The translations under genes and the position numbers were made by a program. This document shows positions 13,989 to 56,630 of a stretch of DNA of 64,000 nucleotides, piece by piece. Below the pieces are notes generated by a model. It saw only the letters and a list, made by a program, of their open reading frames with translations. It searched no databases and was not told the origin of the DNA. Within the stretch, counting starts at the first letter, position 1. Each line of letters opens with the position of its first letter. Source of the stretch: Bdellovibrionales bacterium CG10_big_fil_rev_8_21_14_0_10_45_34 (lineage in GTDB: Bacteria > Bdellovibrionota > Bdellovibrionia > Bdellovibrionales > 1-14-0-10-45-34); contig PEZS01000011.1 of NCBI GenBank assembly GCA_002778785.1, positions 186,001-250,000 on the forward strand, read 5' to 3'.

Positions 13989-16217
13989 TCAGAGTTTGAT
14001 CGCCCTAAGTCTCAATGCGTTTGCCACGACAGAAACTGAACTAAAGCTCATGGCAACGCTTGCAATCATCGGACTCAACAAGACTCCGTAGAATGGGTAG
14101 AGAAGGCCCGCTGCAATCGGAACTCCGGCAATATTATAGATAAACGCGAAAAAGAGGTTCTGCCTTATGTTTTTCATTGTGTGATGACTTAACCGATGGG
14201 CTTTAACAATTCCCAGTAAATCGCCCTTAACAAGAGTCACACCCGCACTTTCAATCGCAACGTCTGTTCCTGTACCCATTGCAATTCCTACATCGGCGTG
14301 AGCAAGAGCGGGAGCATCATTGATACCATCACCTGCCATTACAACGCGCTCGCCCTCTTTTTGAAATTGCTGGATTATCTGCCCCTTTCGCTCCGGTAGT
14401 ACTTCTGCTTCAAAGCTTTCAATATCTACCTCTCGAGCTACAGCCGCTGCGGTTAAGCGATTGTCGCCAGTCAGCATCACCACTTTGATTCCCTTAGATT
14501 TAAAGTATTTAATCGCTTCCTTTGTTGTTTCCTTAATAGGGTCCTTCACAGCTAAAACACCTGCTGGAATCTTATCAATCGCAACAAGCATGACACCCTG
14601 ACCCTCTTGCCGAAGGTCGTCCGCAATCGGCATCAGATCTGATGGGTCAACTTTGTGATTCCTAAGGAGTCGCTCATTGCCAACTATTACCTCTCTGCCC
14701 GCAACGGTGGCCCGAATACCGTGGCCAACAATAGATTCAAAATTTGTTGCTGTAGCTAAAGATAGGCCTTTCTTTTTAGCCCCATTTAACACAGCTTCAG
14801 CAAGCGGATGTTCGCTGGCCATCTCTACTGAAGCCGCCGAAGAAAGAACCTCGCTTTCAGTGAATCCGCCAATAACTTTGACTGCCATGAGCTTTGGCGC
14901 GCCGACAGTGAGCGTTCCGGTTTTGTCGACAACTAAGGTGGTTATCTTTTCGAGCCGTTCTAATGCCTCTGCGTTCTTAATTAGTATACCTTGCGTAGCA
15001 CCCTTGCCAACACCGACCATTATCGACATAGGCGTAGCAAGACCAAGTGCGCAGGGGCACGCTATAATTAGCACGGCCACAGAGTTTACAATAGCATACG
15101 TCAGTGCGGGCTCTGGCCCAAACACAAACCAGGTAATCGCTGTCAAAATGGCCGCAATAACTACCATTGGTACGAAATATCCAGATACAGTGTCCGCCAT
15201 TTTTTGAATCGGCGCGCGACTCCTTTGTGCTTGCGAAACCATTTTTACAATTTGAGACAAGAGAGTGTCTTTTCCTACTCGCGTAGCCGCCATAACAAAA
15301 CTACCAGATTTATTTAACGTGCCACCAATTACTTTGCTGCCTTTGAATTTTTCTAATGCAATAGGCTCTCCCGAAACCATGCTTTCATCGACCAAGCTTT
15401 TGCCCTCGAGAACATGACCATCAACAGGAACTTTCTCTCCGGGGCGAACGCGCAGCTTGTCGCCTGTTTGCACCTGTTCAATAAGTACATCGATTTCTTG
15501 GCCATCGCTGCTCAACCTTCTAGCGGTTTTTGGAGCAAGGCCAATAAGAGATCGGATGGCATTTCCAGTTTGGCTACGAGCGCGAAGCTCCAATACCTGT
15601 CCTAATAAAACAAGTGTTGTGATTACAGCAGCTGATTCAAAGTAAAGGGGTATAACATTTCCGTGACCTCGAAAAGCATCCGGAAATAGGTGCGGGAAAA
15701 AGGTCACAACAGTACTGTAAAGATACGCCACGCCTGTTCCCAGTGCTATTAAGGTGAACATATTAAGCTTGCGAGTTACTATCGAAATCCAACCGCGCTC
15801 AAAAAAGGGCCATCCAGCCCAAATGACCACTGGTGTAGCAAGAATCATCTGAATTCCCGAATACAGCCACCAGCTCATATTCCTCTGCACAGGTTGCCCG
15901 GGAATTAAATCAGACATAGCTAGAACCAGTAGAGGAACCGACAACAATATGCTTATTTTAAGACGCTTCGAGAAATCTATAAGTTCTGGATTCTCAATAT
16001 TCTCGACCGAGAGTTCTACTGGCTCAAGTGCCATGCCGCAGATGGGGCAGCTCCCCGGCCCCTTTTGCGTAACTTCAGGATGCATTGGGCAAGTGTATTG
16101 ACTTTCACTGTCTCCACTCAAATCAGGTTTACGCGTGTCGCTCTTGTGCTTTTCGTGGCAGGAGCTGTGGTCGTGGTCTTTAAAATTGTCGTTTTTATCG
16201 TTATTATTTGGAATCAT
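13989..16217 (-). CDS. copA: P1B-type copper-transporting ATPase
   Basis: 742 residues. It exports Cu(I) from the cytoplasm across the inner membrane. In order: a His-rich N-terminus, a heavy-metal-binding domain of the YTCPMHPEV...CPICGM type (about 41-66) instead of the classical GMTCxxC domain, the membrane helices, the transport motif CPC at 387-389, the phosphorylated Asp in DKTGTLT at 431, the HP motif (SEHPLAEA) and the hinge [10 protein letters not shown]. The CPC motif identifies a Cu/Ag class pump. AGGAG lies upstream of the ATG at 16217. Its promoter carries a CueR-type operator (16256-16278), and the divergent cueR-like gene supports copper-induced expression. Confidence 0.95.
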
Positions 16218-16249
16218 GTACGTTTCTCCTCAAATCCGCTTACTTGCCC

Positions 16250-16280
16250 ATCATCGACCTTCCAGCAGTTGGAAGGTCAA
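16250..16280 (-). promoter_or_regulatory. copA promoter with CueR-type operator
   Basis: Positions 16256-16278 form a 23-bp dyad, GACCTTCCA and TGGAAGGTC around 5 central bases, a close match to the CueR box. On the minus strand TTGACC (16280-16275) acts as -35 and GATGAT (16255-16250) as -10, with a 19-bp spacer. Such an over-long spacer is the hallmark of promoters that MerR-family activators switch on by DNA distortion. The predicted transcript starts about 25 nt before the copA ATG. Confidence 0.85.
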
Positions 16281-16297
16281 GGGTTTCTAACAAATTG

Positions 16298-16334
16298 ATT
16301 CAACTTGATCCAATTCAGCTTGATCCAATTCACC
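16298..16334. repeat. 15-bp tandem repeat between the copper promoters
   Basis: ATTCAACTTGATCCA (16298-16312) and ATTCAGCTTGATCCA (16313-16327) lie in tandem, followed by a partial third copy ATTCACC. They sit between the two CueR-type promoters. They may be extra binding sites or simple slippage. Confidence 0.7.
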
Positions 16335-16360
16335 TAGTCTAATTGCGTAAGTATAAAACA

Positions 16361-16391
16361 TTGACCTTCCAATGGTTGGAGGGTTTAGACT
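16361..16391 (+). promoter_or_regulatory. cueR promoter with second CueR-type operator
   Basis: TTGACC at 16361 and TAGACT at 16386 are spaced by 19 bp, and the spacer holds the imperfect dyad GACCTTCCA/TGGAGGGTT (16363-16385). This is the same architecture as the copA promoter, facing the other way, and suggests autoregulation. Transcription would start near 16398, practically at the ATG at 16399, implying a leaderless mRNA. Confidence 0.7.
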
Positions 16392-16398
16392 GTGCCGT

Positions 16399-16791
16399 AT
16401 GACAATAGGACAAGCTGCTAAAACTTCAGGCGTGAATGCCAAACTCATTCGTCACTATGAATCAATTGGTATTGTTCCAAGAGCCGCAAGGACTGCGTCT
16501 GGCTACAGGATATACTCTGAAAGTGATGTTCATATTTTGACTTTTGTTAAACGCGCCAGAGGCCTAGGGTTTTCAATGAAGGAAATCAAAAAACTTGTTA
16601 GTCTTTGGCGCAATAGAACTCGTGCAAGCTCGGACGTAAAAGCAATGACACTTGCGCACATACACACACTTGAAGAAAAGATAAGAGATTTACAGCAAAT
16701 GCGGTCTACCCTAGTTGAGCTGACAAAAAACTGTCACGGAGATATCAGACCAAGCTGTCCAATCTTAGAAGATCTTTCTAGAAGGGATTAG
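16399..16791 (+). CDS. cueR: CueR-like copper-responsive MerR-family regulator
   Basis: About 130 residues. The N-terminal winged helix (MTIGQAAKTSGVNAKLIRHYE, then GYRIYSESDVHIL) is typical of MerR activators. A dimerisation helix and a C-terminal metal loop CHGDIRPSC follow; this C-x7-C spacing is that of Cu(I)-sensing CueR. The ATG at 16399 is chosen because it begins the conserved MTIGQAA and because an in-frame ATG at 16372 lies inside the operator and promoter. There is no ribosome-binding site ahead of it, consistent with a leaderless transcript. It should activate copA and itself; the multicopper oxidase gene downstream may be co-transcribed. Confidence 0.9.
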   Translation: MTIGQAAKTSGVNAKLIRHYESIGIVPRAARTASGYRIYSESDVHILTFVKRARGLGFSMKEIKKLVSLWRNRTRASSDVKAMTLAHIHTLEEKIRDLQQMRSTLVELTKNCHGDIRPSCPILEDLSRRD

Positions 16792-16892
16792 TGCGCAGTT
16801 TGTACCTATCAAAAGCAAACTGAGTCTTCTTCTTTGGGACAACATAAACTGCTGAGTCGTTGAAACTGCACCCAGCGCAAGGAGGATACTAA

Positions 16893-19115
16893 ATGAAGCT
16901 AACACTGCTCTCTGTTTTACTTTTACTTCCTTGGATCTCCTTTGCCAAAACAGTTCACTATGAAATCACTATTAGAAATGAATCTGTAAATATGAGTGGC
17001 AAAAAGGAGGCTGATTTTGCACTCACTGTAAACGGGGGAATTCCGGCGCCAACTCTTGAATTTACCGAAGGCGACGATGCTGAGATCTTGGTAAACAATG
17101 AGCTTACCAAAGAGGAAGTTTCAATTCATTGGCATGGCTTACTACTGCCCCCCGAAGAAGATGGAGTGGCTTATGTGAATACTCCTCCTATCTATCCCGG
17201 AAGCTCAAGACTATTTAAGTTCAAAATCCGGCAAAGCGGTACATTTTGGTATCATTCACATACGTCTGTTCAAGAGCAAAAAGGGGTTTATGGCGCCTTT
17301 ATAGTTCACCCCAAGAAAAAAATGTTTGTTTACGATAGGGATGCAGTTGTCGTTATCAGCGATTGGTCCGATGAAAACGCCGATATGATCATTCGTAATC
17401 TTCGAAAGGATGGCGACTATTACCTTTACAAAAAAGATTCCGTTCGTTCCTATTTTGGAGCGATTCAAGATGGTGGGTTAAGGAGTCATCTTTACAATGA
17501 ATGGACTCGAATGGGAGGGATGGATTTGTCTGACGTAGGCTATGATGCCTTTCTCATTAACGGTAAAATCGACTCACAACTTCTGACGGCTCGACCTGGT
17601 GAAAAGTTGAGAATTCGCATAATCAATGCCGGCGCTTCCAGTTACTTTTATGTTTCGCTCGCTGATCAAGCAATGACAGTTATTTCTGCAGATGGTGTCG
17701 ACATCAAACCTTTGCAAACGAAAGAACTTCTCATCGGCATGGCCGAAACCTACGACATTCTCTTCACAGTTCCTGAAGCCAAGAACTACGAACTGCGCGC
17801 TACAGTTCAGGATGTTACGGGATTTGCTTCAACATGGATTGGCAGCGGTCCAAAAGTTTCTGCATCTCTAAAGGAGAAGCCTAATCTATATGCAGCAATG
17901 GAGCATAGCTCCCACGCAGGCTCCACAGACCATTCGAAGCACGAAGAAATGAGTAATCACCAAGGTCACGCCCACAATGCCCACCGCGCCCACCACCCGC
18001 ACAATACGCACGGCAAACACAAAGCGTCCGCAGAAGAGCCGAGAGATGACGACAACACTGATTGGTCAAACCAATCTAGCGCAATGCTTAGTCAAAACAC
18101 AGCTCCAAGAAAATTGGAACCTGATGAGCCTGTGATTCAATCGTTGACCGTGGATTCAATCAAGTCGCTACGGCCTACGACTTTGCCAAAAAAAGCGAAA
18201 GTTCATGATGTGAAGCTATCACTCGGCGGAGATATGGAGCGCTACATTTGGCATATCAACGGCAAAGCGATCCATGAAGATCGTCTTTTGCTAATAAATG
18301 AAGGTGAGGTGGTTAGGTTCACTTTTGTAAATGAGACCATGATGCATCACCCAATGCACTTTCATGGTCACTTCTTTCGAGTCATTAATGATGCCGGCGA
18401 TCACTCCCCCCTAAAACACACGGTGGACGTGCCGCCACACTCCTCCCGAACCATTGAGTTCTACGCAAATGAACCGGGTCAATGGATGCTCCATTGTCAC
18501 AATCTCTACCATATGAAAACCGGTATGGCGCGAGTCGTGCGCTACAACGACTATAAGCTAACACCGCAAATGCAAAAATATGACCGGCAAGACCCGCACC
18601 TTCACGATCATATCTACTATTACTCGATGCTCGAAGCCGCGACTAATCATGCGCAAGCAAACATAAAGTTGATGAGAACCTGGGATGAGCTTGATATACG
18701 AATGGAAACAGCAGATATCGAAGGGAAACATTTTAACTTTGGAAACGATTGGGAAACCGAAGGTGATTTGCATTACCGCCGATGGTTTTCGAGATTCGTC
18801 AACGTCTTCGCGGGCCCATCACTTTATCACGAGCAAGGATATGCGGTTGTCGGAGTCGGGTATATTCTACCAATGTTGATTGAAAGCGCTGTGTCTGTGA
18901 ATCACAAAGGACGGTTCCGGTTTGACTTAGAAAAGCGCTTTCAATGGACGAAAAGTATTTTTACCGATGCCGATTTTTCGTGGCGACCAGGGTGGGGCGG
19001 TGAACGCGACTCTGAGTTCGAGGTTAGTTTGATGTACTCGCCTAGCTGGTCGTGGGCAGCAGGCCTTATGCTCACAGAAAAAAGCCTCGGTGCCGGATTG
19101 CAAATGCAGTTCTAG
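16893..19115 (+). CDS. Periplasmic multicopper oxidase fused to a CopB-like barrel
   Basis: 740 residues. A signal peptide (to about 18) is followed by a CopA/PcoA-type multicopper oxidase: copper ligands HWHG at 79-82, HSH at 121-123, a His/Met-rich insert at about 336-376, MHHPMHFHGH at 484-493 and the T1/trinuclear centre HCHNLYHMKTGM with Cys535. Such enzymes oxidise Cu(I) to Cu(II) in the periplasm. About 200 further residues follow. They contain HDHIYYYSMLEAATNHA, then alternating amphipathic strands ending in GLQMQF, with a terminal Phe as in outer-membrane barrels. This resembles the separate CopB/PcoB protein, so the gene looks like a CopA-CopB fusion. GGAGG precedes the ATG. It lies 100 nt after cueR, in the copper island. 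Confidence 0.88.
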   Translation: MKLTLLSVLLLLPWISFAKTVHYEITIRNESVNMSGKKEADFALTVNGGIPAPTLEFTEGDDAEILVNNELTKEEVSIHWHGLLLPPEEDGVAYVNTPPIYPGSSRLFKFKIRQSGTFWYHSHTSVQEQKGVYGAFIVHPKKKMFVYDRDAVVVISDWSDENADMIIRNLRKDGDYYLYKKDSVRSYFGAIQDGGLRSHLYNEWTRMGGMDLSDVGYDAFLINGKIDSQLLTARPGEKLRIRIINAGASSYFYVSLADQAMTVISADGVDIKPLQTKELLIGMAETYDILFTVPEAKNYELRATVQDVTGFASTWIGSGPKVSASLKEKPNLYAAMEHSSHAGSTDHSKHEEMSNHQGHAHNAHRAHHPHNTHGKHKASAEEPRDDDNTDWSNQSSAMLSQNTAPRKLEPDEPVIQSLTVDSIKSLRPTTLPKKAKVHDVKLSLGGDMERYIWHINGKAIHEDRLLLINEGEVVRFTFVNETMMHHPMHFHGHFFRVINDAGDHSPLKHTVDVPPHSSRTIEFYANEPGQWMLHCHNLYHMKTGMARVVRYNDYKLTPQMQKYDRQDPHLHDHIYYYSMLEAATNHAQANIKLMRTWDELDIRMETADIEGKHFNFGNDWETEGDLHYRRWFSRFVNVFAGPSLYHEQGYAVVGVGYILPMLIESAVSVNHKGRFRFDLEKRFQWTKSIFTDADFSWRPGWGGERDSEFEVSLMYSPSWSWAAGLMLTEKSLGAGLQMQF

Positions 19116-47677: not shown

Positions 47678-47754
47678 GGGCCGTTAGCTTAGTTGGTTAA
47701 AGCATCCGGCTCATAACCGGAGGATCCGGGGTTCGAGTCCCTGACGGCCTACCA
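47678..47754 (+). tRNA. tRNA with CAU anticodon, probably elongator Met
   Basis: A 77-nt class I tRNA with encoded CCA. The acceptor stem is GGGCCGT/ACGGCCT (G1-U72 wobble), the anticodon arm is TCCGG-CTCATAA-CCGGA with CAT, and the T arm contains GGTTCGAGTCC. It lacks the C1-A72 mismatch and the three stacked G-C pairs of initiator tRNA. A lysidine-modified Ile2 tRNA cannot be excluded. It lies 130 nt after rpoD. Confidence 0.93.
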
Positions 47755-48769: not shown

Positions 48770-49666
48770 CTAATCGTCAAGCCATTGGTAAACAATCACG
48801 CCAACACCGGCGCCGATAGCTGCAATAAAAATTCCTGGGGCGATTTTGTGTATGACAGTATCGCCAATTTCAGAATGCCTTGTCCATTCGGCAATTCTAT
48901 TGCCGTTTCTGCCAACTAAGCTATGTTCCGGGAAGCGACTTTTCACCTGCGCTTTAATGTAGTCCCAATGTCTCTGACTCATTTGTGATAAAGCCGCCCC
49001 GGTGGCGATCGAGGCGACACCAGCTAGCGACAATGCCGCTGATGCCGCTGTGAAGTCACCTCCGAGCACTCCGTTGTATGGTCCCGTGCCGCTGAGAAAA
49101 AGAAAGCACGCTCCAGCGGCCAATCCACCGCGGACGGCTCCTTGCGCTGTCGCCTTTGAAGCCTTCTCCAGAGTTTGCCAGAATCTGTGGCCTGACTTTG
49201 TTTCGATCGGTCTTCCGAATAGCCAAGAACCTGACCCGCGAATCACTAAGCCAAGCACCGCTCCACCAATTATCGACATACCAAGAGCCTCAAATTCGTT
49301 GGTGTCTGGCCCATCGATGAAACTGGATTTGAATCCGTGGATACTACCGTCCGGTATTCCTACCCAGCTGAGCGATTTCCAGAAGTAACCCTCTTTGTCG
49401 TAATCGACGGGCGCGAAAACTCCCCGCCTTGGTGCCGATTCCACATTCATCACGGCAAGATTCTCTTCCTTTGCGGAGCCACGCGAATTTGTATCTGCTG
49501 CAGGAGTCGCAGGTACAGTTGGTGGTAGGGGCTGTTCAATAGCGGGTGGAGCTGGAGAGGCCTTGTCTTCATGCGGGACGGGTTCTCCATAATCTTGAGT
49601 TCCGCAGCGAACAGAAATCACCAAAATGACAAAACTAAAAAGCACAAGAGCACTACGCGAGGTCAT
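48770..49666 (-). CDS. Proline-rich membrane protein at the end of the VirB-like operon
   Basis: 298 residues. A signal-like segment (ALVLFSFVILVISVRC) is followed by a Pro/Ala-rich linker (about 35-65), then three to four Gly/Ala-rich membrane segments (SIIGGAVLGLVIRG, VRGGLAAGACFLFLSG, SLAGVASIATGAAL, GIFIAAIGAGVGVIVYQWL). A Cys follows the signal, but the preceding Arg is unusual for a lipobox. No family is recognised. It lies 112 nt downstream of the lipoprotein gene on the same strand, so it may be the last gene of the secretion operon. Confidence 0.6.
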   Translation of the reverse strand: MTSRSALVLFSFVILVISVRCGTQDYGEPVPHEDKASPAPPAIEQPLPPTVPATPAADTNSRGSAKEENLAVMNVESAPRRGVFAPVDYDKEGYFWKSLSWVGIPDGSIHGFKSSFIDGPDTNEFEALGMSIIGGAVLGLVIRGSGSWLFGRPIETKSGHRFWQTLEKASKATAQGAVRGGLAAGACFLFLSGTGPYNGVLGGDFTAASAALSLAGVASIATGAALSQMSQRHWDYIKAQVKSRFPEHSLVGRNGNRIAEWTRHSEIGDTVIHKIAPGIFIAAIGAGVGVIVYQWLDD

Positions 49667-49778
49667 AAAATCCTCCTGAAAAAGAGATTCGGGACAAAAA
49701 ACTGCACGACTCTATCCAGATGTCTACTGGTGAATGTTCCCCTGAGGGGATGCCTGCTTTCTTACGTTGTTTCATACT

Positions 49779-50405
49779 TTATTGCCCATTCGGGGTTTCT
49801 TCTCTGCCGGTACTTCTTGGAGGTAAATTTTCGTCTTTCTGCGTTTCTATAAAATACCGAGGGTTTCTGGACCGCGTGACAAAACTGCCCGGCCTTATGA
49901 TTTGCCAAATATATCGAGAAGAAGTGACTTCATTGTCATTCTGATCCGGGAGCAAGTAGCGTTTTCGAAAGACTGGATATACCCACTTTGTGCTGTCATC
50001 GAGTGAGATTGCGGAGCTTCCGATCTCTTTCCCAGAGATTTTACAGGTAGTCCCGGTTTCGGTATCGCCAAGATTTAACCTCCTGGCCAAATCTGGATCC
50101 ATATCCTTAGGATCACACAACCTGTATCTTGCATACCTGCCAGAGATTTCAGTTTGTTGATACTCCAACTGGCGGTAGTGCCATGCAAGTACTCCGCCTG
50201 TAGCTACCGAGAAAATCGCAGCCGTTATGATAGTGTTTTGGGTTTCAAATTGCTTCTGCTGCCCGTGATGAACAAACTGATTGCCTACGGCAGCTCCTAC
50301 CACCGCGCCCGCTAGCATTCCTAGAGCAATGTTTTTACCAGAAGTTGCACATCCAGCAAAAGACAAACCCATTAGCAGAACAAATAGAAACTTTAAGTTA
50401 TTCAT
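49779..50405 (-). CDS. Lipoprotein in VirB7/TraV position
   Basis: About 208 residues from ATG 50405, which has AAGGAG upstream. The signal peptide ends in the lipobox FAGC (Cys18). A glycine-zipper segment (IALGMLAGAVVGAAVGNQF) follows, then a polar domain with two Cys (LCDPKD, TTCKIS). The start overlaps the VirB10-like stop by 8 nt. In F-like systems a TraV lipoprotein lies after the VirB10 homologue, so it could serve as outer-membrane anchor; sequence similarity is not evident. Confidence 0.68.
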   Translation of the reverse strand: MNNLKFLFVLLMGLSFAGCATSGKNIALGMLAGAVVGAAVGNQFVHHGQQKQFETQNTIITAAIFSVATGGVLAWHYRQLEYQQTEISGRYARYRLCDPKDMDPDLARRLNLGDTETGTTCKISGKEIGSSAISLDDSTKWVYPVFRKRYLLPDQNDNEVTSSRYIWQIIRPGSFVTRSRNPRYFIETQKDENLPPRSTGREETPNGQ

Positions 50406-51384
50406 CGCTTTCTCCTTGGGAAATTTCATATCGCCGAGTCAATGCAACAAAAATGGCTTCACCAGCTGGCACAACAACGTACTCGACGGCGCTGTTGCGG
50501 ATATCTCGAAGAATATCCTCTGCCACTTGAAACGAAGCTGTGCTTAGGCCGGCCAAAACTTGATTTTCAAGACTCACTTCCGGAACTGATCCAAAGGCAC
50601 TCCCCGTTCTCTGCTGAGCCGCACCAGCAAATCCACTCAAAAAACCAAAGGCAAGAGCCGTTCCATACGTTTCTAGTTTGTTTGAGAAAAAGAGACCATC
50701 AATCTCTGGCAAGGCGTTTCTTGAAAGCGCAAGACTGCTAATACGAGTTTCTTTTCCATTAGGCAATACAAGCGTATCAAACTCTACGATGACTCCCTTG
50801 AGGACTGGATTCAGTCTTGACCTGCCGATAAGGCGAGAGCCTTTGGGTATTTTCCTCACCGTATCCATTCGAAATTCATTTGTCGTTTCCGCCATTGTGA
50901 AGGATCGCTGCACAGATGTTTTAATTGGCGTGATCAACTGCGCCTGAAAAACCGCTCCCGTCGGAACGTAAGCGTCAGAATCTGTAAAGGACGTTTCCGA
51001 AAAGCCACCCTGGGAGCTATCGTTGAGAATTATTTGGGTTGACGACGAATCTGCTAAAAATACCTTTCTCGTCTTCGGCTGGACGCTGGCTACGGTCCTT
51101 CGCCGGCTCACCTTCTGCTTTCTCAATAGTTTAACTTCTCTATGAAGCGCCTTGGTTTCCTGCTGGAGTTCCATGAGTTCCGCGACAGCCCTCACGTCAG
51201 CGTCTTGGTCTGCGGTGGCGGCAGCTACTTGTTCTTTCTTCGCCGGATTCAAAAATAGGATCACTGCGACTCCAAGGCTAACTAATACAATGACTGCGCC
51301 AACGAGAAAGCGGATCAACTTGCGCTTTTGATTTCTCCATGCGGCGGTGTCTTCTTTGTCTTTGATCAATTCGTCAATTCTCAC
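50398..51384 (-). CDS. VirB10/TrbI/TraB-like T4SS core protein
   Basis: 328 residues. Short cytoplasmic N-terminus, one membrane helix at about 25-46 (LIRFLVGAVIVLVSLGVAVILF), a coiled coil (ELMELQQETKALHREVKLLRKQK), then a periplasmic beta-domain: VPTGAVFQAQLITPIKTS, VRKIPKGSRLIGRSRLNP and RISSLALSRNALPEIDG are typical VirB10 landmarks, as is the C-terminal VPAGEAIFVALTRRYE. It spans the periplasm to link inner-membrane energy to the outer-membrane pore. It overlaps its neighbours at both ends. Confidence 0.85.
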   Translation of the reverse strand: MRIDELIKDKEDTAAWRNQKRKLIRFLVGAVIVLVSLGVAVILFLNPAKKEQVAAATADQDADVRAVAELMELQQETKALHREVKLLRKQKVSRRRTVASVQPKTRKVFLADSSSTQIILNDSSQGGFSETSFTDSDAYVPTGAVFQAQLITPIKTSVQRSFTMAETTNEFRMDTVRKIPKGSRLIGRSRLNPVLKGVIVEFDTLVLPNGKETRISSLALSRNALPEIDGLFFSNKLETYGTALAFGFLSGFAGAAQQRTGSAFGSVPEVSLENQVLAGLSTASFQVAEDILRDIRNSAVEYVVVPAGEAIFVALTRRYEISQGESDE

Positions 51385-51833
51385 AACACACAGTCCTCAT
51401 TAAAAACTTGGGTTATCTTTACGATGTAGTCTGCCTTCTCCTTTTCTACGAAACGCAAATCGAACATCAATTGAGCGTTTCCTTCAAAAAAAACGAAAAG
51501 ATTCGTATGAAAACTTTTATCCAATCCTTGAGCAAAATGCCCTTTAGTAGTGGATCTCAGAGATTCGATTTCTCTCATTTTTATATCTGGAATGATTGCT
51601 AAACTTCGCTTCGACACTTTGTTTGTACTAATTTTAAAATGAATTTTGTCGGCGTAGAGAGTCAGTTTTGGTGTCTGATCAAATACCAACTGCGTCGTCA
51701 TACCCAGCGCCAAGTTTACTTTAATTGGCTTACATGACGTCTCCGATACGATACGCATTCTATCCAAAGACCAGACACTTTGGGCAACCGTAAGGGCGAG
51801 TAGTAATTTTATTGCTTGCTTGAACATCAGCAT
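51381..51833 (-). CDS. TraK/VirB9-like periplasmic protein (short)
   Basis: 150 residues with a signal peptide (AIKLLLALTVAQSVWS). The mature N-terminal part (ETSCKPIKVNLALGMTTQLVFDQTPKLTLYADKIHFKISTN) recalls the beta-domain of VirB9/TraK proteins, which line the outer-membrane pore. It is much shorter than VirB9 (about 290) and lacks the C-terminal pore-forming domain. The identification rests on that segment and on its position between VirB6-like and VirB10-like genes, with overlaps of 4-7 nt. Confidence 0.58.
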   Translation of the reverse strand: MLMFKQAIKLLLALTVAQSVWSLDRMRIVSETSCKPIKVNLALGMTTQLVFDQTPKLTLYADKIHFKISTNKVSKRSLAIIPDIKMREIESLRSTTKGHFAQGLDKSFHTNLFVFFEGNAQLMFDLRFVEKEKADYIVKITQVFNEDCVL

Positions 51834-52978
51834 TCCCTTCTCAAAATTTCACTCTTAGCCCTTCGAGAAAGAGCTACGAGCCCGTCTTTCTTGTTCGAAG
51901 ACCTGTTAGTGACGCTACGCCACCCACTTCTCACCGATCGATCGGCAGATAGGCTCTCGCTTTCAATGGTGTCATGCTCCTCTGTGCCATGACTTGCCTC
52001 TTTCGCCCGCACAGATTGCTTACGCATTCTTCTTTCTGCTTCTGCTTTTTTATCGTGAAGGTCTTCTACTTGATGGGTCAGCTCGTGAGTTCTTTTGAAC
52101 TCTCGACCCGAAAGAAAATCATGCTTTATGATTTGAAATCTCTGACCAATGCTAGCGCGTGTCACTCCCGCCGCCCATAACCCTCCTCCGGCAACCTTGC
52201 CGAGCGCTGTGAGACCTAAAAATGCCATGCCCCAACCTGCCTCAGATGGAAATATACTGCTACCCAAGTGATTGCCGAATTTCCTGGTTATTGGCGGCAC
52301 GAAGAGCATTGAAATTCCTAGGACTAAAGACAAAAAATAATAATTTGAATCGGGGTGGTTCGGAAAGGGCTCTCCACTCACAATCGCTGGAAGAATAAAG
52401 GCCACTAATACAATAATTGTCGTCTGCCAGAGAAAAAGTATAACAAGCTCTCGAGTGACCTCAAATAGCGCCTCTACTTCGTTGAAGAGTATGCCCTTCG
52501 TGAGGACAAATGGTCCTAGAACCGCAAGTAGGAAAAACTGAACCATAAAGAATGCGTAGAGTACCCAGTAGGCTAAGTTTGGTATGAATCTCGCCACCGT
52601 CTCGGCAGACCATCCAAATATTCTTGATGGACTATCAAGACTTGGAAATCCGAAACCCCTCCAGGAAATTCCAAAAACATCTACAACAAGATATGTGTTG
52701 AACGTATCTATGAGGTTTTTCAAGGAAAGTACAAACACTGGCCAAAAGATGATTGCGATGACAATGACCGCAAAATTCCAAACTTTTTCTTCCATTCTTG
52801 CGTCTTCAAACCTTCTCAGAGCAAGTATTCCGATCGAAGCAATAAGAGTGAGGGTTATTAACAGGGAGGCCGGTTCCGAAAATTGAACAACAACCCTTTC
52901 AAACCAACCCGGTGGAAGCGAAAAAGCGGTTGCACGAACCGGAAACACATTGACCTGAGGGTATCCAAAATCATTCAC
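51827..52978 (-). CDS. VirB6/TrbL-like polytopic membrane protein
   Basis: 383 residues. The first 280 contain about six membrane helices (LLITLTLIASIGILAL, WNFAVIVIAIIFWPVFVLSL, YWVLYAFFMVQFFLLAVLGPFVL, LVILFLWQTTIIVLVAFILP, YYFLSLVLGISMLFVPP and the GLTALGKVAGG segment), then a charged cytoplasmic tail of about 100 residues with a coiled coil. This matches the VirB6/TrbL inner-membrane channel subunit. The ATG overlaps the stop of the VirB5-like gene as ATGA. Confidence 0.75.
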   Translation of the reverse strand: MNDFGYPQVNVFPVRATAFSLPPGWFERVVVQFSEPASLLITLTLIASIGILALRRFEDARMEEKVWNFAVIVIAIIFWPVFVLSLKNLIDTFNTYLVVDVFGISWRGFGFPSLDSPSRIFGWSAETVARFIPNLAYWVLYAFFMVQFFLLAVLGPFVLTKGILFNEVEALFEVTRELVILFLWQTTIIVLVAFILPAIVSGEPFPNHPDSNYYFLSLVLGISMLFVPPITRKFGNHLGSSIFPSEAGWGMAFLGLTALGKVAGGGLWAAGVTRASIGQRFQIIKHDFLSGREFKRTHELTHQVEDLHDKKAEAERRMRKQSVRAKEASHGTEEHDTIESESLSADRSVRSGWRSVTNRSSNKKDGLVALSRRAKSEILRREC

Positions 52979-53676
52979 TTTTCTCGCCTCTCCTTCTGCA
53001 GTTCATTTTGCCGAGAGGCCCCCTCAAAAATGGCCGATCCGCCTGACCGAGCGCTTTGAGTTCTGAGAAGCCTTAGCTCTTCTCGAATAGCTTGCATCGT
53101 CGCGAGCATCTGAATGAGTTGACTTGATACTCGAACATTTGCTCGCCAGTTTCCTATTTGTGACTCTGCAATTACTTTGGGTACGAAGCCCGGTTCCGCC
53201 GAATTCAGTGCCTGCTCAAGCATTTTCTGCCTTGCAAGATCGTCCTGATTGGCTAGTACTCCGCTTTTCTGAAAGTTTATAAAGTCACCAGTTTTCATCT
53301 GTGCCTCGTCATCTCTTCCACGAGGATCCGCATCAATTACCTCTTTAAGTTGTTTGGCTTCAGTGAAGGTATTCTTGAAGCTATTGTTGGATTGAACCTC
53401 CAACATCGCCTTTTCATAGAGGGCGGTGCCTTGAACTTTCTCTAAAGACCTATCGACTCCGCTAGATAAGCGACCCAGTGATCGGTCGATACCATCCAAC
53501 TGACTACTTGATAACTTTGAAGTTTCTAGCGACTGCTTCAGGAGTTCAATTTGTTCCCTTGTTTGGAGCACTAGTTGCCTCAGTTGCATTGAATCTGCAG
53601 ATAATAGATTTGAAGATGCACGATTCGAAACAAAGCACAAACCCAACACAAAAAGAGCCACCTTAAGTTGATTCAT
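52975..53676 (-). CDS. VirB5/TrbJ-like secreted helical protein
   Basis: 233 residues with a signal peptide (KVALFVLGLCFVSNRAS) and long amphipathic helices (LRQLVLQTREQIELLKQSLE, AKQLKEVIDAD, MLATMQAIREELRLL). VirB5/TrbJ proteins are helical bundles at the pilus tip. Its place between VirB4 and VirB6 supports this. Overlap of 4 nt with both neighbours. Confidence 0.68.
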   Translation of the reverse strand: MNQLKVALFVLGLCFVSNRASSNLLSADSMQLRQLVLQTREQIELLKQSLETSKLSSSQLDGIDRSLGRLSSGVDRSLEKVQGTALYEKAMLEVQSNNSFKNTFTEAKQLKEVIDADPRGRDDEAQMKTGDFINFQKSGVLANQDDLARQKMLEQALNSAEPGFVPKVIAESQIGNWRANVRVSSQLIQMLATMQAIREELRLLRTQSARSGGSAIFEGASRQNELQKERREK

Positions 53677-55976
53677 CTCACTTCGCTCCTTTGCTCTTTT
53701 GAAAACTGCAGCAACTTTCTTTGAAAGCTTCCGCTATTTTTACTAAGGGCACTCTCAAGATAAGAAATATCTTCAGGGGAAGTGGTCGAAAGCCAATATT
53801 CCAGTTTGTTTGGTTCATATCGCAAAATCGTTCTATCATGATCTCGCATAAGGTAGATTTCTGAAAAAGACCCTTTTTCTCTTTGAAGTGAATCAATTGC
53901 CATTTGGTCAACTTCAGTAAGAGACAAGATTTGTGAGTAGTTCCTTGGGTCACCCCTTTGTTGAAGGATCGCCTTAGAATGAGTGTTTTGTAGAATGCTA
54001 GAGCCTGCGAGGTTAGAGGTAACCTTTTCTAGATCTTGAACGATGATGATCACTCCGCTGTAGTACTTTCGTAGCGTTGAAACAAGTTCATCAACAAACA
54101 TGGATTGAGTTTTCAGTAGCGAGAAAGCAACTTCATCGAGTACTAACCATGAAAATCTTTGCCTTTTAGTATCTCGGACCCTGGCCCAAACCGTCGCGCA
54201 CACGATGAGCTGGACGACTCTTGCAAGGTCCTCAAACTCAGTAAGTCCCTTAAGATCAAATGTCATAATGTCTTGATCGAGGGGGATGCTAGCATCGGTA
54301 TCTAGGAACTGTGCAAAGAAACTTCCTTTACCCCATGGCTCGAGCAGCATGGCCAACTTCTTCTCTTCTTCGCTTCGAGGACCTGATAACTCGTCAATGA
54401 GGTAGCTGATTGGTCTACGCGGCAACTCCTTCATTTCAAACAGGTCCGTTAGTTTTTCCCACAACAAATGCCGAATCTCTACAGATGACGACTTTCCGTC
54501 GAATCTAATCATCTCCAAGAAAATCTGAAAAATGTGCTGACGCCTTATGGTCTCTTCTTTGGAGTTATCAGATTTAGCCAAGAAGAATGGCCCCATTTGA
54601 AAGCCTGTATCTATATCAAAGCCCATAACCTTTCCGCCCAAGAACTTTGTTAACTTGTTATAGGACCCTCCAATATCGACGATAAAAATATTCGGATTCA
54701 AACTCATGCTTTGAGCAATGAGTGAATTGACAAAGAAACTCTTTCCAGCTCCGCTGGTTCCGCTAACTAGCCAGTTGTAATTTGCGACGGCTGGATCGAT
54801 GGGATCAATTGAGTATATGCTACCGCTTCTGGTGTGAAAGGTTACAACCGGCCTCGCATCTCCTTTAGACGGTCTGAAGAAGGGCAAAAAATGTATCGCG
54901 TTAGAACTTAAGACTGTATGCAGTTTTTGGTTTTTTCCTCTGAAAGTAGGGATGCACTCCAAATAAGAATCGAATGTACCGATTGCACTCTCTTCGAATT
55001 CACAAAAATTCATTTTGGCGGCAGCTTGCACGATATGCCCGAGAGCTCGACTCTGAAAGACGCCCAAAGACTCCGGCATTCTTAAGCCGACATTTGCCTG
55101 GATGGCTACGATGTTCTCAGAGTTCTCTGCTAAAATTCTGAGTATTTCATCGATTTGGCGAATCTGACTTTCGATCTTTTGAAGATCTTTGTTCCCTCTT
55201 TTTGACGCCAGCAAATTTCTCTTCTTTTCAAGACTCTTACTGACCGGCTGTGTTTGTTTAATCTTTAACCTTATTGATAAATCTATGGGATATGGCAGCG
55301 ACGTAATCGCCTCTATCATACCCAAATGAGTTTCCGCTTCTGGCAGCTTAGTGAGTTCTACCGAGCGAAAGACGTCTCCATCTATTTTGAGATGGCCGGG
55401 GCGGATTTCGATGTGGGGCCACTCATTCTGAAGATCTTCGGACTTTTGCAGCGACTGAGCGCTCGAGTTAATCTCTTTTAGAACTTCCTCTTTACCAAGA
55501 ACTCTGGCGTTAAGACCCATGGCCCTAAGGGCCGACAACATCAGAAGCCGTTTTTCATTGCCCCCTTGCCGGCCCGAATTACCCGGACTCCAGTAACAAA
55601 CAATTATCTTCTGAGAGGAGACTTGAGGCAAATCTTCACTCATCTCACTTAGCTCACTCGCTAGCTTTGAAAGCAAAAGCTGGCGTCCGTATTTGTTCTC
55701 CGACAAGAGAGAGTTTTCTAGCTGAGACTCCACCCAATCAGAAAAATGCACTCTCTTTCTGTAGATTATTTGAATCTCTTCGCCAGCTTCAAAATGAAAA
55801 GCTGTTCTCCAAAGGTTGTGAAGCTGATTTATCTTTTGATCAGTGAAAAATGACGTATCTATACCGTCTACGGAGTATAGCCATCCGCTACATTTTTTTG
55901 CCCCAAGTGTTCCGTCTTCTGCTACTTCATTAACGGGCCAAAAATCTTTCAATGAAAAGGCCTTAGGCTCGAGCAT
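53673..55976 (-). CDS. VirB4/TraC-family T4SS ATPase
   Basis: 767 residues. Hallmarks: Walker A SGTSGAGKSFFVNSL at about 403-418 and Walker B FSWLVLDEVAF near 610; MGFDIDTGFQMGPF lies between. The N-terminal half is the VirB4-type membrane-associated domain (FHTRSGSIYSIDP, NYNWLVSGT just before Walker A). VirB4 powers assembly of pili or translocation. It overlaps the VirB3-like gene by 14 nt and the VirB5-like gene by 4. It is the strongest marker of the operon. Confidence 0.93.
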   Translation of the reverse strand: MLEPKAFSLKDFWPVNEVAEDGTLGAKKCSGWLYSVDGIDTSFFTDQKINQLHNLWRTAFHFEAGEEIQIIYRKRVHFSDWVESQLENSLLSENKYGRQLLLSKLASELSEMSEDLPQVSSQKIIVCYWSPGNSGRQGGNEKRLLMLSALRAMGLNARVLGKEEVLKEINSSAQSLQKSEDLQNEWPHIEIRPGHLKIDGDVFRSVELTKLPEAETHLGMIEAITSLPYPIDLSIRLKIKQTQPVSKSLEKKRNLLASKRGNKDLQKIESQIRQIDEILRILAENSENIVAIQANVGLRMPESLGVFQSRALGHIVQAAAKMNFCEFEESAIGTFDSYLECIPTFRGKNQKLHTVLSSNAIHFLPFFRPSKGDARPVVTFHTRSGSIYSIDPIDPAVANYNWLVSGTSGAGKSFFVNSLIAQSMSLNPNIFIVDIGGSYNKLTKFLGGKVMGFDIDTGFQMGPFFLAKSDNSKEETIRRQHIFQIFLEMIRFDGKSSSVEIRHLLWEKLTDLFEMKELPRRPISYLIDELSGPRSEEEKKLAMLLEPWGKGSFFAQFLDTDASIPLDQDIMTFDLKGLTEFEDLARVVQLIVCATVWARVRDTKRQRFSWLVLDEVAFSLLKTQSMFVDELVSTLRKYYSGVIIIVQDLEKVTSNLAGSSILQNTHSKAILQQRGDPRNYSQILSLTEVDQMAIDSLQREKGSFSEIYLMRDHDRTILRYEPNKLEYWLSTTSPEDISYLESALSKNSGSFQRKLLQFSKEQRSEVR

Positions 55977-56256
55977 CTGTACTCCCTTCAGAAATCAAAT
56001 GGCAAGCCAACCTTTTTGGTAAACTGAGGAATCTCAGTAGCCTGAGAAAAAGCAATCCGCCCAATGAGGCTCGGACTAACACTGCAAATAGTCCCACTAA
56101 AGCCGCAAGCAGAAATGCCCATGCACGCGGGATATGAAGGAACTGCGCCAGCTCACCACCAAAAACGACAAGAACACAAAGAACTACGAGCTCGCGAACG
56201 CTCACGCCAAATATGTAAAAGTTTGAATCGAGATTTCGGTAAACAGGGGTACTCAT
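55963..56256 (-). CDS. VirB3-like small membrane protein
   Basis: About 97 residues from the ATG at 56256 (MSTPVYRNLDSNFYIFGV). Family members begin much the same way, so this start is preferred to an ATG at 56337 that would add 27 residues. Two membrane segments (LVVLCVLVVFGGELAQFL and AWAFLLAALVGLFAVLVRASLGG) are close together, as in VirB3/TraL/TrbD. The order VirB2-VirB3-VirB4 is the canonical one. Confidence 0.78.
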   Translation of the reverse strand: MSTPVYRNLDSNFYIFGVSVRELVVLCVLVVFGGELAQFLHIPRAWAFLLAALVGLFAVLVRASLGGLLFLRLLRFLSLPKRLACHLISEGSTDARA

Positions 56257-56333
56257 GCTAGGCCTTCTTTCATTCTTACGAAAGAGACGCCAACCACTTA
56301 AAAGGAGCCAAGAGATCTTTTCTTGGCTGATGA

Positions 56334-56630
56334 TCACATAAAATAATCTATGATCATCTGGGCTGCATTAACCACTACTAATCCGATGACCCCATAAACC
56401 AGACGAGTAAGACCCGATGATTCGCCTTTAGCGATCAAAAGGCCAGCCCAAGCAATAAATCCAATGATTACAACGTTCATTAATCTTACCAAATCTGCGA
56501 TCAACTCACCGATTCGACCTTCTAGCCCGCTCTGCGCAATCAAAAGTTGCGGCAAAAACGCCACCACTATCAAAGGCAAAACAAACGAACGCAATTTCAA
56601 GGGTTTATGTTTATGTCGACTGTCTCTCAT
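56334..56630 (-). CDS. VirB2/TrbC-type pilin
   Basis: 98 residues: a signal peptide (LKLRSFVLPLIVVAFLPQLLIAQS), then two membrane helices (LMNVVIIGFIAWAGLLIAKG and LVYGVIGLVVVNAAQMIIDYF), the standard VirB2 pilin form. It is the first gene of the operon. A possible promoter TTGACT (56664-56659) and TAAAAA (56642-56637) on the minus strand stands right before the ATG. Confidence 0.82.
   Translation of the reverse strand: MRDSRHKHKPLKLRSFVLPLIVVAFLPQLLIAQSGLEGRIGELIADLVRLMNVVIIGFIAWAGLLIAKGESSGLTRLVYGVIGLVVVNAAQMIIDYFM

What the first reader, a model, noticed from the sequence alone, without database searches (positions are those of the whole stretch)
48770..56630. Reduced VirB-like secretion operon without VirB8, VirB11, VirD4 or relaxase
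Nine minus-strand genes with 4-14 nt overlaps encode a VirB2 pilin, VirB3, VirB4, VirB5, VirB6, a short TraK/VirB9-like protein, VirB10, a lipoprotein and a membrane protein. The core is recognisable, but no inner-membrane scaffold VirB8, no VirB11 or VirD4 ATPase, and no relaxase gene lies in or next to it. The VirB9-like protein lacks the pore domain. The flanks are housekeeping genes (rpoD operon, divIVA/proC), so it looks like a resident chromosomal machine rather than a mobile element. It could be a pilus or DNA-uptake/adhesion device that needs only the VirB4 motor, or a protein exporter for prey interaction.
Basis: partly seen in the sequence, partly recalled or inferred. Interest (0 to 1): 0.7.

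Follow-up and report, generated by a model that had tools for sequence, protein, structure and literature searches.

The report
Stripped-down type IV secretion/pilus machine
Nine genes in this Bdellovibrio-like bacterium encode a conserved machine, derived from bacterial mating apparatus, that has lost its DNA-handling genes and a supposedly essential scaffold protein, so it is probably a pilus or surface device that shows how small such machines can become.

Summary
Nine intact minus-strand genes (48770-56630) encode VirB2, B3, B4, B5-like, B6, a VirB9 reduced to its N-terminal domain, B10, a glycine-zipper lipoprotein and a second lipoprotein. VirB8, VirB11, coupling protein (VirD4) and relaxase are absent. 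The same gene order occurs in four other Bdellovibrionales genomes (two across contig pairs), partly in a fifth, and more divergently in another family; flanks differ and carry no recombinase. Two genomes (97-99% complete) have only this VirB4 and no VirB8 or coupling protein anywhere, so nothing is borrowed. All 30 other VirB4 loci examined carry VirB8, and 28 show coupling protein and a conserved winged-helix protein too. Two loci of the operon's own clade lack VirB8 but keep the coupling protein. The operon is thus a conjugation system reduced in steps. Best reading: a VirB4-driven pilus or surface device, nearest in logic to Bartonella Trw and H. pylori ComB but more reduced. Function is inferred, not shown. 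New variant of a known kind.

The parts
56334..56630 (-). g1: VirB2/TrbC-type pilin (98 aa)
   Evidence: Pfam PF04956 9.5e-8; 52-58% identical in relatives
55963..56256 (-). g2: VirB3 (start per homologues at 56256; the listed ORF runs to 56337), two TM-like segments
   Evidence: hhalign vs phylum VirB3 profile 95%, 3.6e-8; homologue starts
53673..55976 (-). g3: VirB4 ATPase (767 aa, TraC/F-like)
   Evidence: PF19044 1.2e-31, TIGR02746 1.1e-58; Walker A/B intact
52975..53676 (-). g4: VirB5-like protein (233 aa)
   Evidence: position between VirB4 and VirB6, and a weak profile match (54%, 1.3e-4) over about 60 N-terminal residues
51827..52978 (-). g5: VirB6 polytopic inner-membrane protein (383 aa)
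   Evidence: hhalign 64%, 6.4e-5 vs loci of which 6 of 9 members hit TrbL/VirB6 PF04610; five TM-like segments
51381..51833 (-). g6: VirB9 N-terminal domain only (150 aa), C-terminal domain absent
   Evidence: hhalign 97.7%, 2e-12, cols 24-129 of 268; fold matches TrwF/CagX/DotH/TraK
50398..51384 (-). g7: VirB10 (328 aa)
   Evidence: PF03743 4.5e-16; 53-58% identical in relatives
49779..50429 (-). g8: glycine-zipper lipoprotein, enlarged homologue of the lipoprotein of the conjugative loci
   Evidence: lipobox; hhalign 97.6%, 2.7e-12; full-length form in exactly the same 9 of 368 genomes as this VirB10 clade
48770..49666 (-). g9: system-specific predicted lipoprotein with glycine-rich hydrophobic segments
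   Evidence: last gene of the operon in six genomes, shorter form in L066; no family hit

Best explanation
The operon encodes a functional type IV secretion machine that descends from a conjugative element of Bdellovibrionota. It has lost the relaxase-like gene, the coupling protein, VirB8 and the C-terminal half of VirB9, while keeping pilin (B2), a tip-like protein (B5-like), pilus platform (B6), motor (B3/B4) and an envelope ring (VirB9 N-terminal domain, B10, lipoproteins g8 and g9). Without a coupling protein it is unlikely to recruit cytoplasmic substrates in the usual way. The most likely mechanism is that VirB4/VirB3 feeds VirB2 pilin onto VirB6/VirB5 and pushes a conjugation-type pilus or pseudopilus through the VirB10-lipoprotein channel, for attachment to surfaces or other cells, possibly with retraction. 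Shown: gene content, conservation, independence from VirB8/VirD4 in trans in two near-complete genomes, common descent with conjugative loci. Inferred: pilus formation, adhesion, and a simpler VirB4 ring without VirB8.
For: Nine genes conserved in order in divergent genomes with different flanks. In G031 and G065 the operon's VirB4 is the only one, and no VirB8, winged-helix protein or coupling protein is found (only a large FtsK-like frame matches the coupling-protein profile, weakly). All 30 other VirB4 loci mapped carry VirB8, and 28 carry coupling protein and winged-helix protein, including a Myxococcus plasmid. VirB8 relatives show the NPxG hallmark in 8 of 9 cases; none of the nine window proteins does. 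The operon clade is one group at 100/100, and its members L067/L068 keep the coupling protein in the ancestral position. Pilin, tip-like and platform genes are all kept, whereas ComB and Ptl lack VirB5; the review PMC12857230 states that VirD4 is not needed for conjugative pili and that the VirD4-less Bartonella Trw is proposed to make adhesive pili.
Against: VirB8 is described as an essential assembly factor (PMC5494299), and I know of no diderm pilus made without it. VirB11 is stated to be needed for pili in VirB-type systems (PMC12857230), though F-like systems lack it (own knowledge). The VirB5 assignment is weak. There are no expression, imaging or mutant data.
Confidence: 0.5

Rival explanations
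1. Two-step protein exporter: periplasmic, Sec-exported proteins are loaded without a coupling protein and pushed out, as in the Bordetella Ptl system.
For: No coupling protein but an envelope channel set; Ptl and Brucella VirB work without VirD4 (PMC12857230); the extra lipoprotein g9 could be a specific component.
Against: No cargo-like gene family recurs beside the operon across genomes. A VirB5-like protein is retained, whereas Ptl lacks VirB5.
Confidence: 0.2
2. DNA-uptake device like H. pylori ComB, pulling DNA into the periplasm for ComEC.
For: VirB4 as sole ATPase, no VirB11 or VirD4, as in ComB; a ComEC core in 8 of 9 carriers.
Against: ComEC is widespread (10 of 14 control genomes), so its presence does not discriminate. 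ComB keeps VirB8 and lacks VirB5, the reverse of the state here.
Confidence: 0.15
3. The operon borrows VirB8 and coupling protein from other T4SS loci in its genome.
For: The window's genome has two further T4SS loci with VirB8 and FtsK-type coupling proteins.
Against: G031 and G065 carry the operon with no second VirB4, no VirB8 and no coupling protein.
Confidence: 0.05
4. Decaying remnant of a conjugative element.
For: Loss of relaxase-like, coupling and scaffold genes; slightly atypical codon usage.
Against: The frames stay open and ordered across genomes whose proteins are only 31-59% identical, and the full-length lipoprotein tracks VirB10 in the same nine genomes. A decaying locus in the same genome looks different: L031 has a shortened VirB4 and no detectable B2/B3.
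Confidence: 0.05
5. Still a mating channel, used by unlinked DNA with an unrecognised coupling ATPase.
For: Clade members L067/L068 keep a coupling protein and L068 an integrase.
Against: No coupling protein other than a large FtsK-like frame in G031 and G065.
Confidence: 0.05

Closest known systems
Bartonella Trw T4SS
   Same: Derived from a conjugation system; no VirD4 coupling protein; keeps VirB2 and VirB5; proposed to make adhesive pili (PMC12857230)
   Different: Trw has multiple variable VirB2 and VirB5 copies; the window operon has one of each, lacks VirB8 and the VirB9 C-terminal domain, and has two lipoproteins. (That Trw keeps VirB8 and VirB11 is my own knowledge.)
Helicobacter pylori ComB DNA-uptake system
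   Same: VirB4 is the only ATPase; no VirB11, no VirD4
   Different: ComB has VirB6-VirB10 including VirB8 and lacks VirB5; the operon lacks VirB8 and has a VirB5-like gene
Bordetella Ptl
   Same: No VirD4
   Different: Ptl lacks VirB5, has a VirB8 homologue (PtlE, PMC2653234) and exports a toxin assembled in the periplasm; no linked cargo here
Conjugative-type T4SS loci of Bdellovibrionota (e.g. L075, L039, L032)
   Same: Same order B2-B3-B4-B5-B6-B9-B10-lipoprotein; clear common descent
   Different: They also have VirB8, a full VirB9, coupling protein and winged-helix protein, and mostly a recombinase nearby
Mycoplasma ICE conjugation module
   Same: Also lacks a VirB8-like component (PMC12857230)
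   Different: Wall-less single-membrane cell and a mobile element, not a diderm envelope machine
Rickettsia VirB9b
   Same: A VirB9 that lost its C-terminal domain (PMC2653234)
   Different: Rickettsia also has a second VirB9 (VirB9a); here the short form is the only VirB9 of the operon

Membership tests
Type IV secretion system superfamily | VirB4 signature ATPase | tested here: met
Type IV secretion system superfamily | VirB9/VirB10 envelope core | tested here: met
   VirB10; VirB9 N-terminal domain (C-terminal domain missing)
Canonical diderm T4SS | VirB8-type inner-membrane scaffold | tested here: not met
   absent from the operon and from whole genomes G031, G065, G084, G258, G359, G363
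Conjugative system | Coupling protein (T4CP) | tested here: not met
Conjugative system | Relaxase | tested here: inconclusive
   no relaxase hit among the nine genes; the winged-helix protein found in conjugative relatives is absent but is not proven to be a relaxase; named relaxase families were not searched genome-wide
VirB/T-type T4SS (Trw-like) | VirB11 ATPase | tested here: not met
   no VirB11 above the curated cut-off in 12 genomes
F-type T4SS (MPF_F) | TraC-like VirB4 | tested here: inconclusive
   best NCBIfam match TIGR02746 at 1.1e-58, but 198.9 bits against a curated cut-off of 567
F-type T4SS (MPF_F) | F-specific TraN/U/W/H/G/F set | tested here: not met
   none among the nine genes
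H. pylori ComB-type uptake system | VirB4 sole ATPase, no VirB11/VirD4 | tested here: met
H. pylori ComB-type uptake system | VirB8 present | tested here: not met
H. pylori ComB-type uptake system | Required for natural transformation | not testable with these tools
   needs a mutant
Bartonella Trw-type adhesive pilus | VirB2 and VirB5 kept, VirD4 lost | tested here: met
   the VirB5 call is weak
Bartonella Trw-type adhesive pilus | Pilus on the cell surface that binds target cells | not testable with these tools
   needs imaging and mutants

The most novel reading that the evidence does not exclude
A double-membrane bacterium uses a T4SS that assembles and works with no VirB8 scaffold and with a VirB9 lacking its C-terminal domain, having evolved stepwise from a conjugative element (VirB8 and VirB9 C-terminal domain lost first, coupling protein and relaxase-like gene later). 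It would be among the smallest diderm T4SSs and would imply a VirB4 ring without the outer subunits that hold VirB8 in R388.
Probability: 0.55. Interest if true: 0.7.

Novelty: new variant of a known kind. Interest (0 to 1): 0.57.

Why it matters
VirB8 is treated as an essential scaffold of diderm T4SSs, and in the R388 structure its N-terminal tails are what the outer VirB4 subunits hold (PMC12857230). A conserved machine that lacks it, in genomes where no other VirB8 is found, makes the question of what VirB8 is for directly testable. The surviving intermediates (L067, L068, L066) give a view of a conjugation machine being converted in steps. It also adds a candidate surface appendage to a phylum rich in predators, where type IV pili have been the main appendage studied.

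Tried and rejected
VirB8 hidden in g8, g9 or the VirB5-like protein: no profile match and no NPxG motif. Fold of g8: unusable (mean pLDDT 46). PDB sequence searches with VirB2, VirB6 and g6 profiles: nothing useful. IMG/VR search with the system's VirB10 and plasmid search with its lipoprotein: nothing. Integration at the nearby tRNA-Met (47678-47754): a different tRNA from the one beside L068 (42 of 77 identical) and no att-like repeat; treated as coincidence. Shared cargo genes in flanks: none convincing, only response-regulator-type matches and one or two scattered pairs. Defence system: only generic ATPase similarity of VirB4 to HerA/Mad8. Sigma-70 promoter scan: at chance level. The winged-helix protein of the conjugative loci looks like a PD-(D/E)XK-type (MOBC-like) relaxase (conserved D, ExE, K), but no Pfam model confirms it, so it is called relaxase-like only. 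The early Pfam VirB8 search of the own genome found nothing even though two VirB8 genes exist there, so it was discarded as too insensitive.
Full report
Observation. The window lies in a 3.06 Mb, 16-contig genome estimated 100% complete. The nine minus-strand ORFs are all there. Pfam and NCBIfam directly identify VirB2, VirB4 and VirB10. The other genes have no useful family hit alone, so I compared profiles of the operon's proteins with profiles built from full T4SS loci of the same phylum: VirB3 95%, VirB9 97.7%, lipoprotein 97.6%, VirB6 64%, VirB5 54% over a short stretch. The first three are solid, VirB6 is likely, and VirB5 rests mostly on position. Start-codon evidence trims the tight-overlap claim: VirB3 probably starts at 56256, and a 112-nt gap precedes the last gene.

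Conservation. VirB4 orthologues at 53-56% identity occur in four of the 98 genomes searched; the next VirB4s are 33% identical or less. In L033 (G015) and L035 (G084), and across contig pairs L036+L037 (G065) and L034+L072 (G031), the same nine genes stand in the same order with unrelated flanks. L071 (G258) holds the second half of the operon. L066 (G361, another family of the phylum) has all nine, with a shorter g9. The named records are Bdellovibrionales and Bdellovibrio metagenome assemblies. A VirB10 profile over 368 genomes of the phylum finds this clade in nine genomes, and an independent profile of the lipoprotein finds its full-length form in exactly the same nine. IMG/VR and plasmids gave none. 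The genome-contig scan used two short peptide patterns only and missed members known, so occurrence outside the phylum is not excluded.

What is missing, and whether it is elsewhere. Profiles of the phylum's VirB8 (NPxG hallmark in 8 of 9 members), coupling protein and winged-helix protein were searched through whole genomes. G031 (99% complete) and G065 (97%) have the operon as their only VirB4 (G065's is split over two contigs). They have no VirB8, no winged-helix protein, and no coupling protein apart from a weak match to a large FtsK-like frame. G258 (82% complete) agrees. In the window's genome the VirB8, coupling and winged-helix genes lie inside two other T4SS loci (C1 about 68-76 kb, C11 about 375-384 kb). 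The VirB6 and VirB9 genes overlap by 7 nt, so there is no room for a VirB8 gene at its usual place. No genome has a VirB11 over the curated cut-off. Since the VirB4 is nearest to TraC of F-type systems, which lack VirB11 (own knowledge), that absence is unremarkable.

VirB9. The 150-residue protein matches only the N-terminal half of full VirB9. Its AlphaFold model (mean pLDDT 70, pTM 0.63) has as its eight best structural matches TrwF, CagX, DotH, the Xanthomonas VirB9-type subunit and outer-ring subunits of F-type and other conjugative core complexes, Z 5.9-6.8 against 3.9 for the next, unrelated fold. Z values in this range can be fortuitous in general; here the family agreement and the sequence profile match carry the case. 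In full-length TrwF the match covers residues 28-128, the N-terminal domain.

Origin. Thirty other VirB4-bearing loci were mapped. All thirty carry VirB8; 28 also carry coupling protein and winged-helix protein, while L091 and L092 do not show these within the stretch read. Twenty-one have a recombinase within the stretch. None of the operon loci has one. L067 and L068, which group with the operon at 100/100, lack VirB8 and the VirB9 C-terminal domain but keep the coupling protein between VirB10 and the lipoprotein, and the winged-helix protein after it. L068 also has a tyrosine integrase beside the 3' end of a tRNA-fMet. L066 lacks the coupling protein. The simplest history is loss of VirB8 and the VirB9 C-terminal domain first, then of the coupling and winged-helix genes. 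The branching order of L066, L067/L068 and the window group is unresolved and the clade sits on a long stem (the tree program also warns of long branches), so later independent losses are possible. GC content is host-like and codon usage only mildly atypical, unlike the AT-rich locus at C11 375-384 kb, so the operon is not a recent import.

Mechanism. The system keeps the parts thought to build a conjugative pilus except VirB8 and VirB11: pilin, tip-like protein, platform, VirB3/VirB4. In R388 the pilus is modelled to grow on VirB6 with VirB5 at the tip, central VirB4 subunits work as motor with VirB3, and outer VirB4 subunits support VirB8 (PMC12857230). A VirB8-free version is therefore predicted to have a plain VirB4 hexamer. 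Without a coupling protein, cytoplasmic substrates are unlikely. Among known VirD4-less systems, Bartonella Trw (proposed adhesive pili) fits best because VirB2 and a VirB5-like protein are kept; ComB and Ptl lack VirB5. I put the pilus or surface-device reading at 0.5, two-step export at 0.2 and DNA uptake at 0.15. VirB8 is described as essential elsewhere (PMC5494299), which is the main argument against easy assembly and the reason the case is interesting. In mycoplasma ICEs VirB8 is also missing (PMC12857230), but those cells have one membrane.

Literature. Searches for Bdellovibrio or Bdellovibrionota T4SS papers found none describing this operon. The library holds open-licence papers only, so this is not proof of novelty.

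Limits. Function is not tested. VirB5 is weakly supported. g9 has no known relatives outside the system. Most carriers are metagenome assemblies, so gaps or contamination could affect single genomes, but the same absences repeat in several.

Noticed in passing
L068 (G359:C14) 16053-17535: A VirB8-less T4SS locus with coupling protein carries a tyrosine integrase beside the 3' end of a tRNA-fMet gene: apparently a mobile element without VirB8.
   Followed up: partly
L067 5208-6700 and L068 7820-9345: VirB6 is split into two frames in both loci, suggesting gene fission.
   Followed up: partly
L031 (own genome C1 about 68-77 kb): Second T4SS locus of the window's genome has a shortened VirB4 (628 aa), no detectable VirB2/VirB3 and a 123-aa VirB9; it looks truncated or decayed.
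   Followed up: no
L032 (own genome C11:372000-391999): Third T4SS locus, apparently complete, GC 0.37 against about 0.45 in the window, with a serine recombinase nearby: probably a recently acquired conjugative element.
   Followed up: partly
A15 family, e.g. L032:3738-4547, L067:10004-10777: Conserved winged-helix protein with invariant H, D, ExE and K close to the coupling protein in nearly all Bdellovibrionota T4SS loci and in a Myxococcus plasmid: candidate unrecognised relaxase with no Pfam family.
   Followed up: partly
L068 14390-15895: 501-aa predicted lipoprotein shares the CG[ST]QDYG start of g9 but not its glycine-rich body.
   Followed up: no
window 47678-47754: tRNA-Met (CAT) about 1 kb from the operon end; no att-like repeat found on the far side.
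   Followed up: yes
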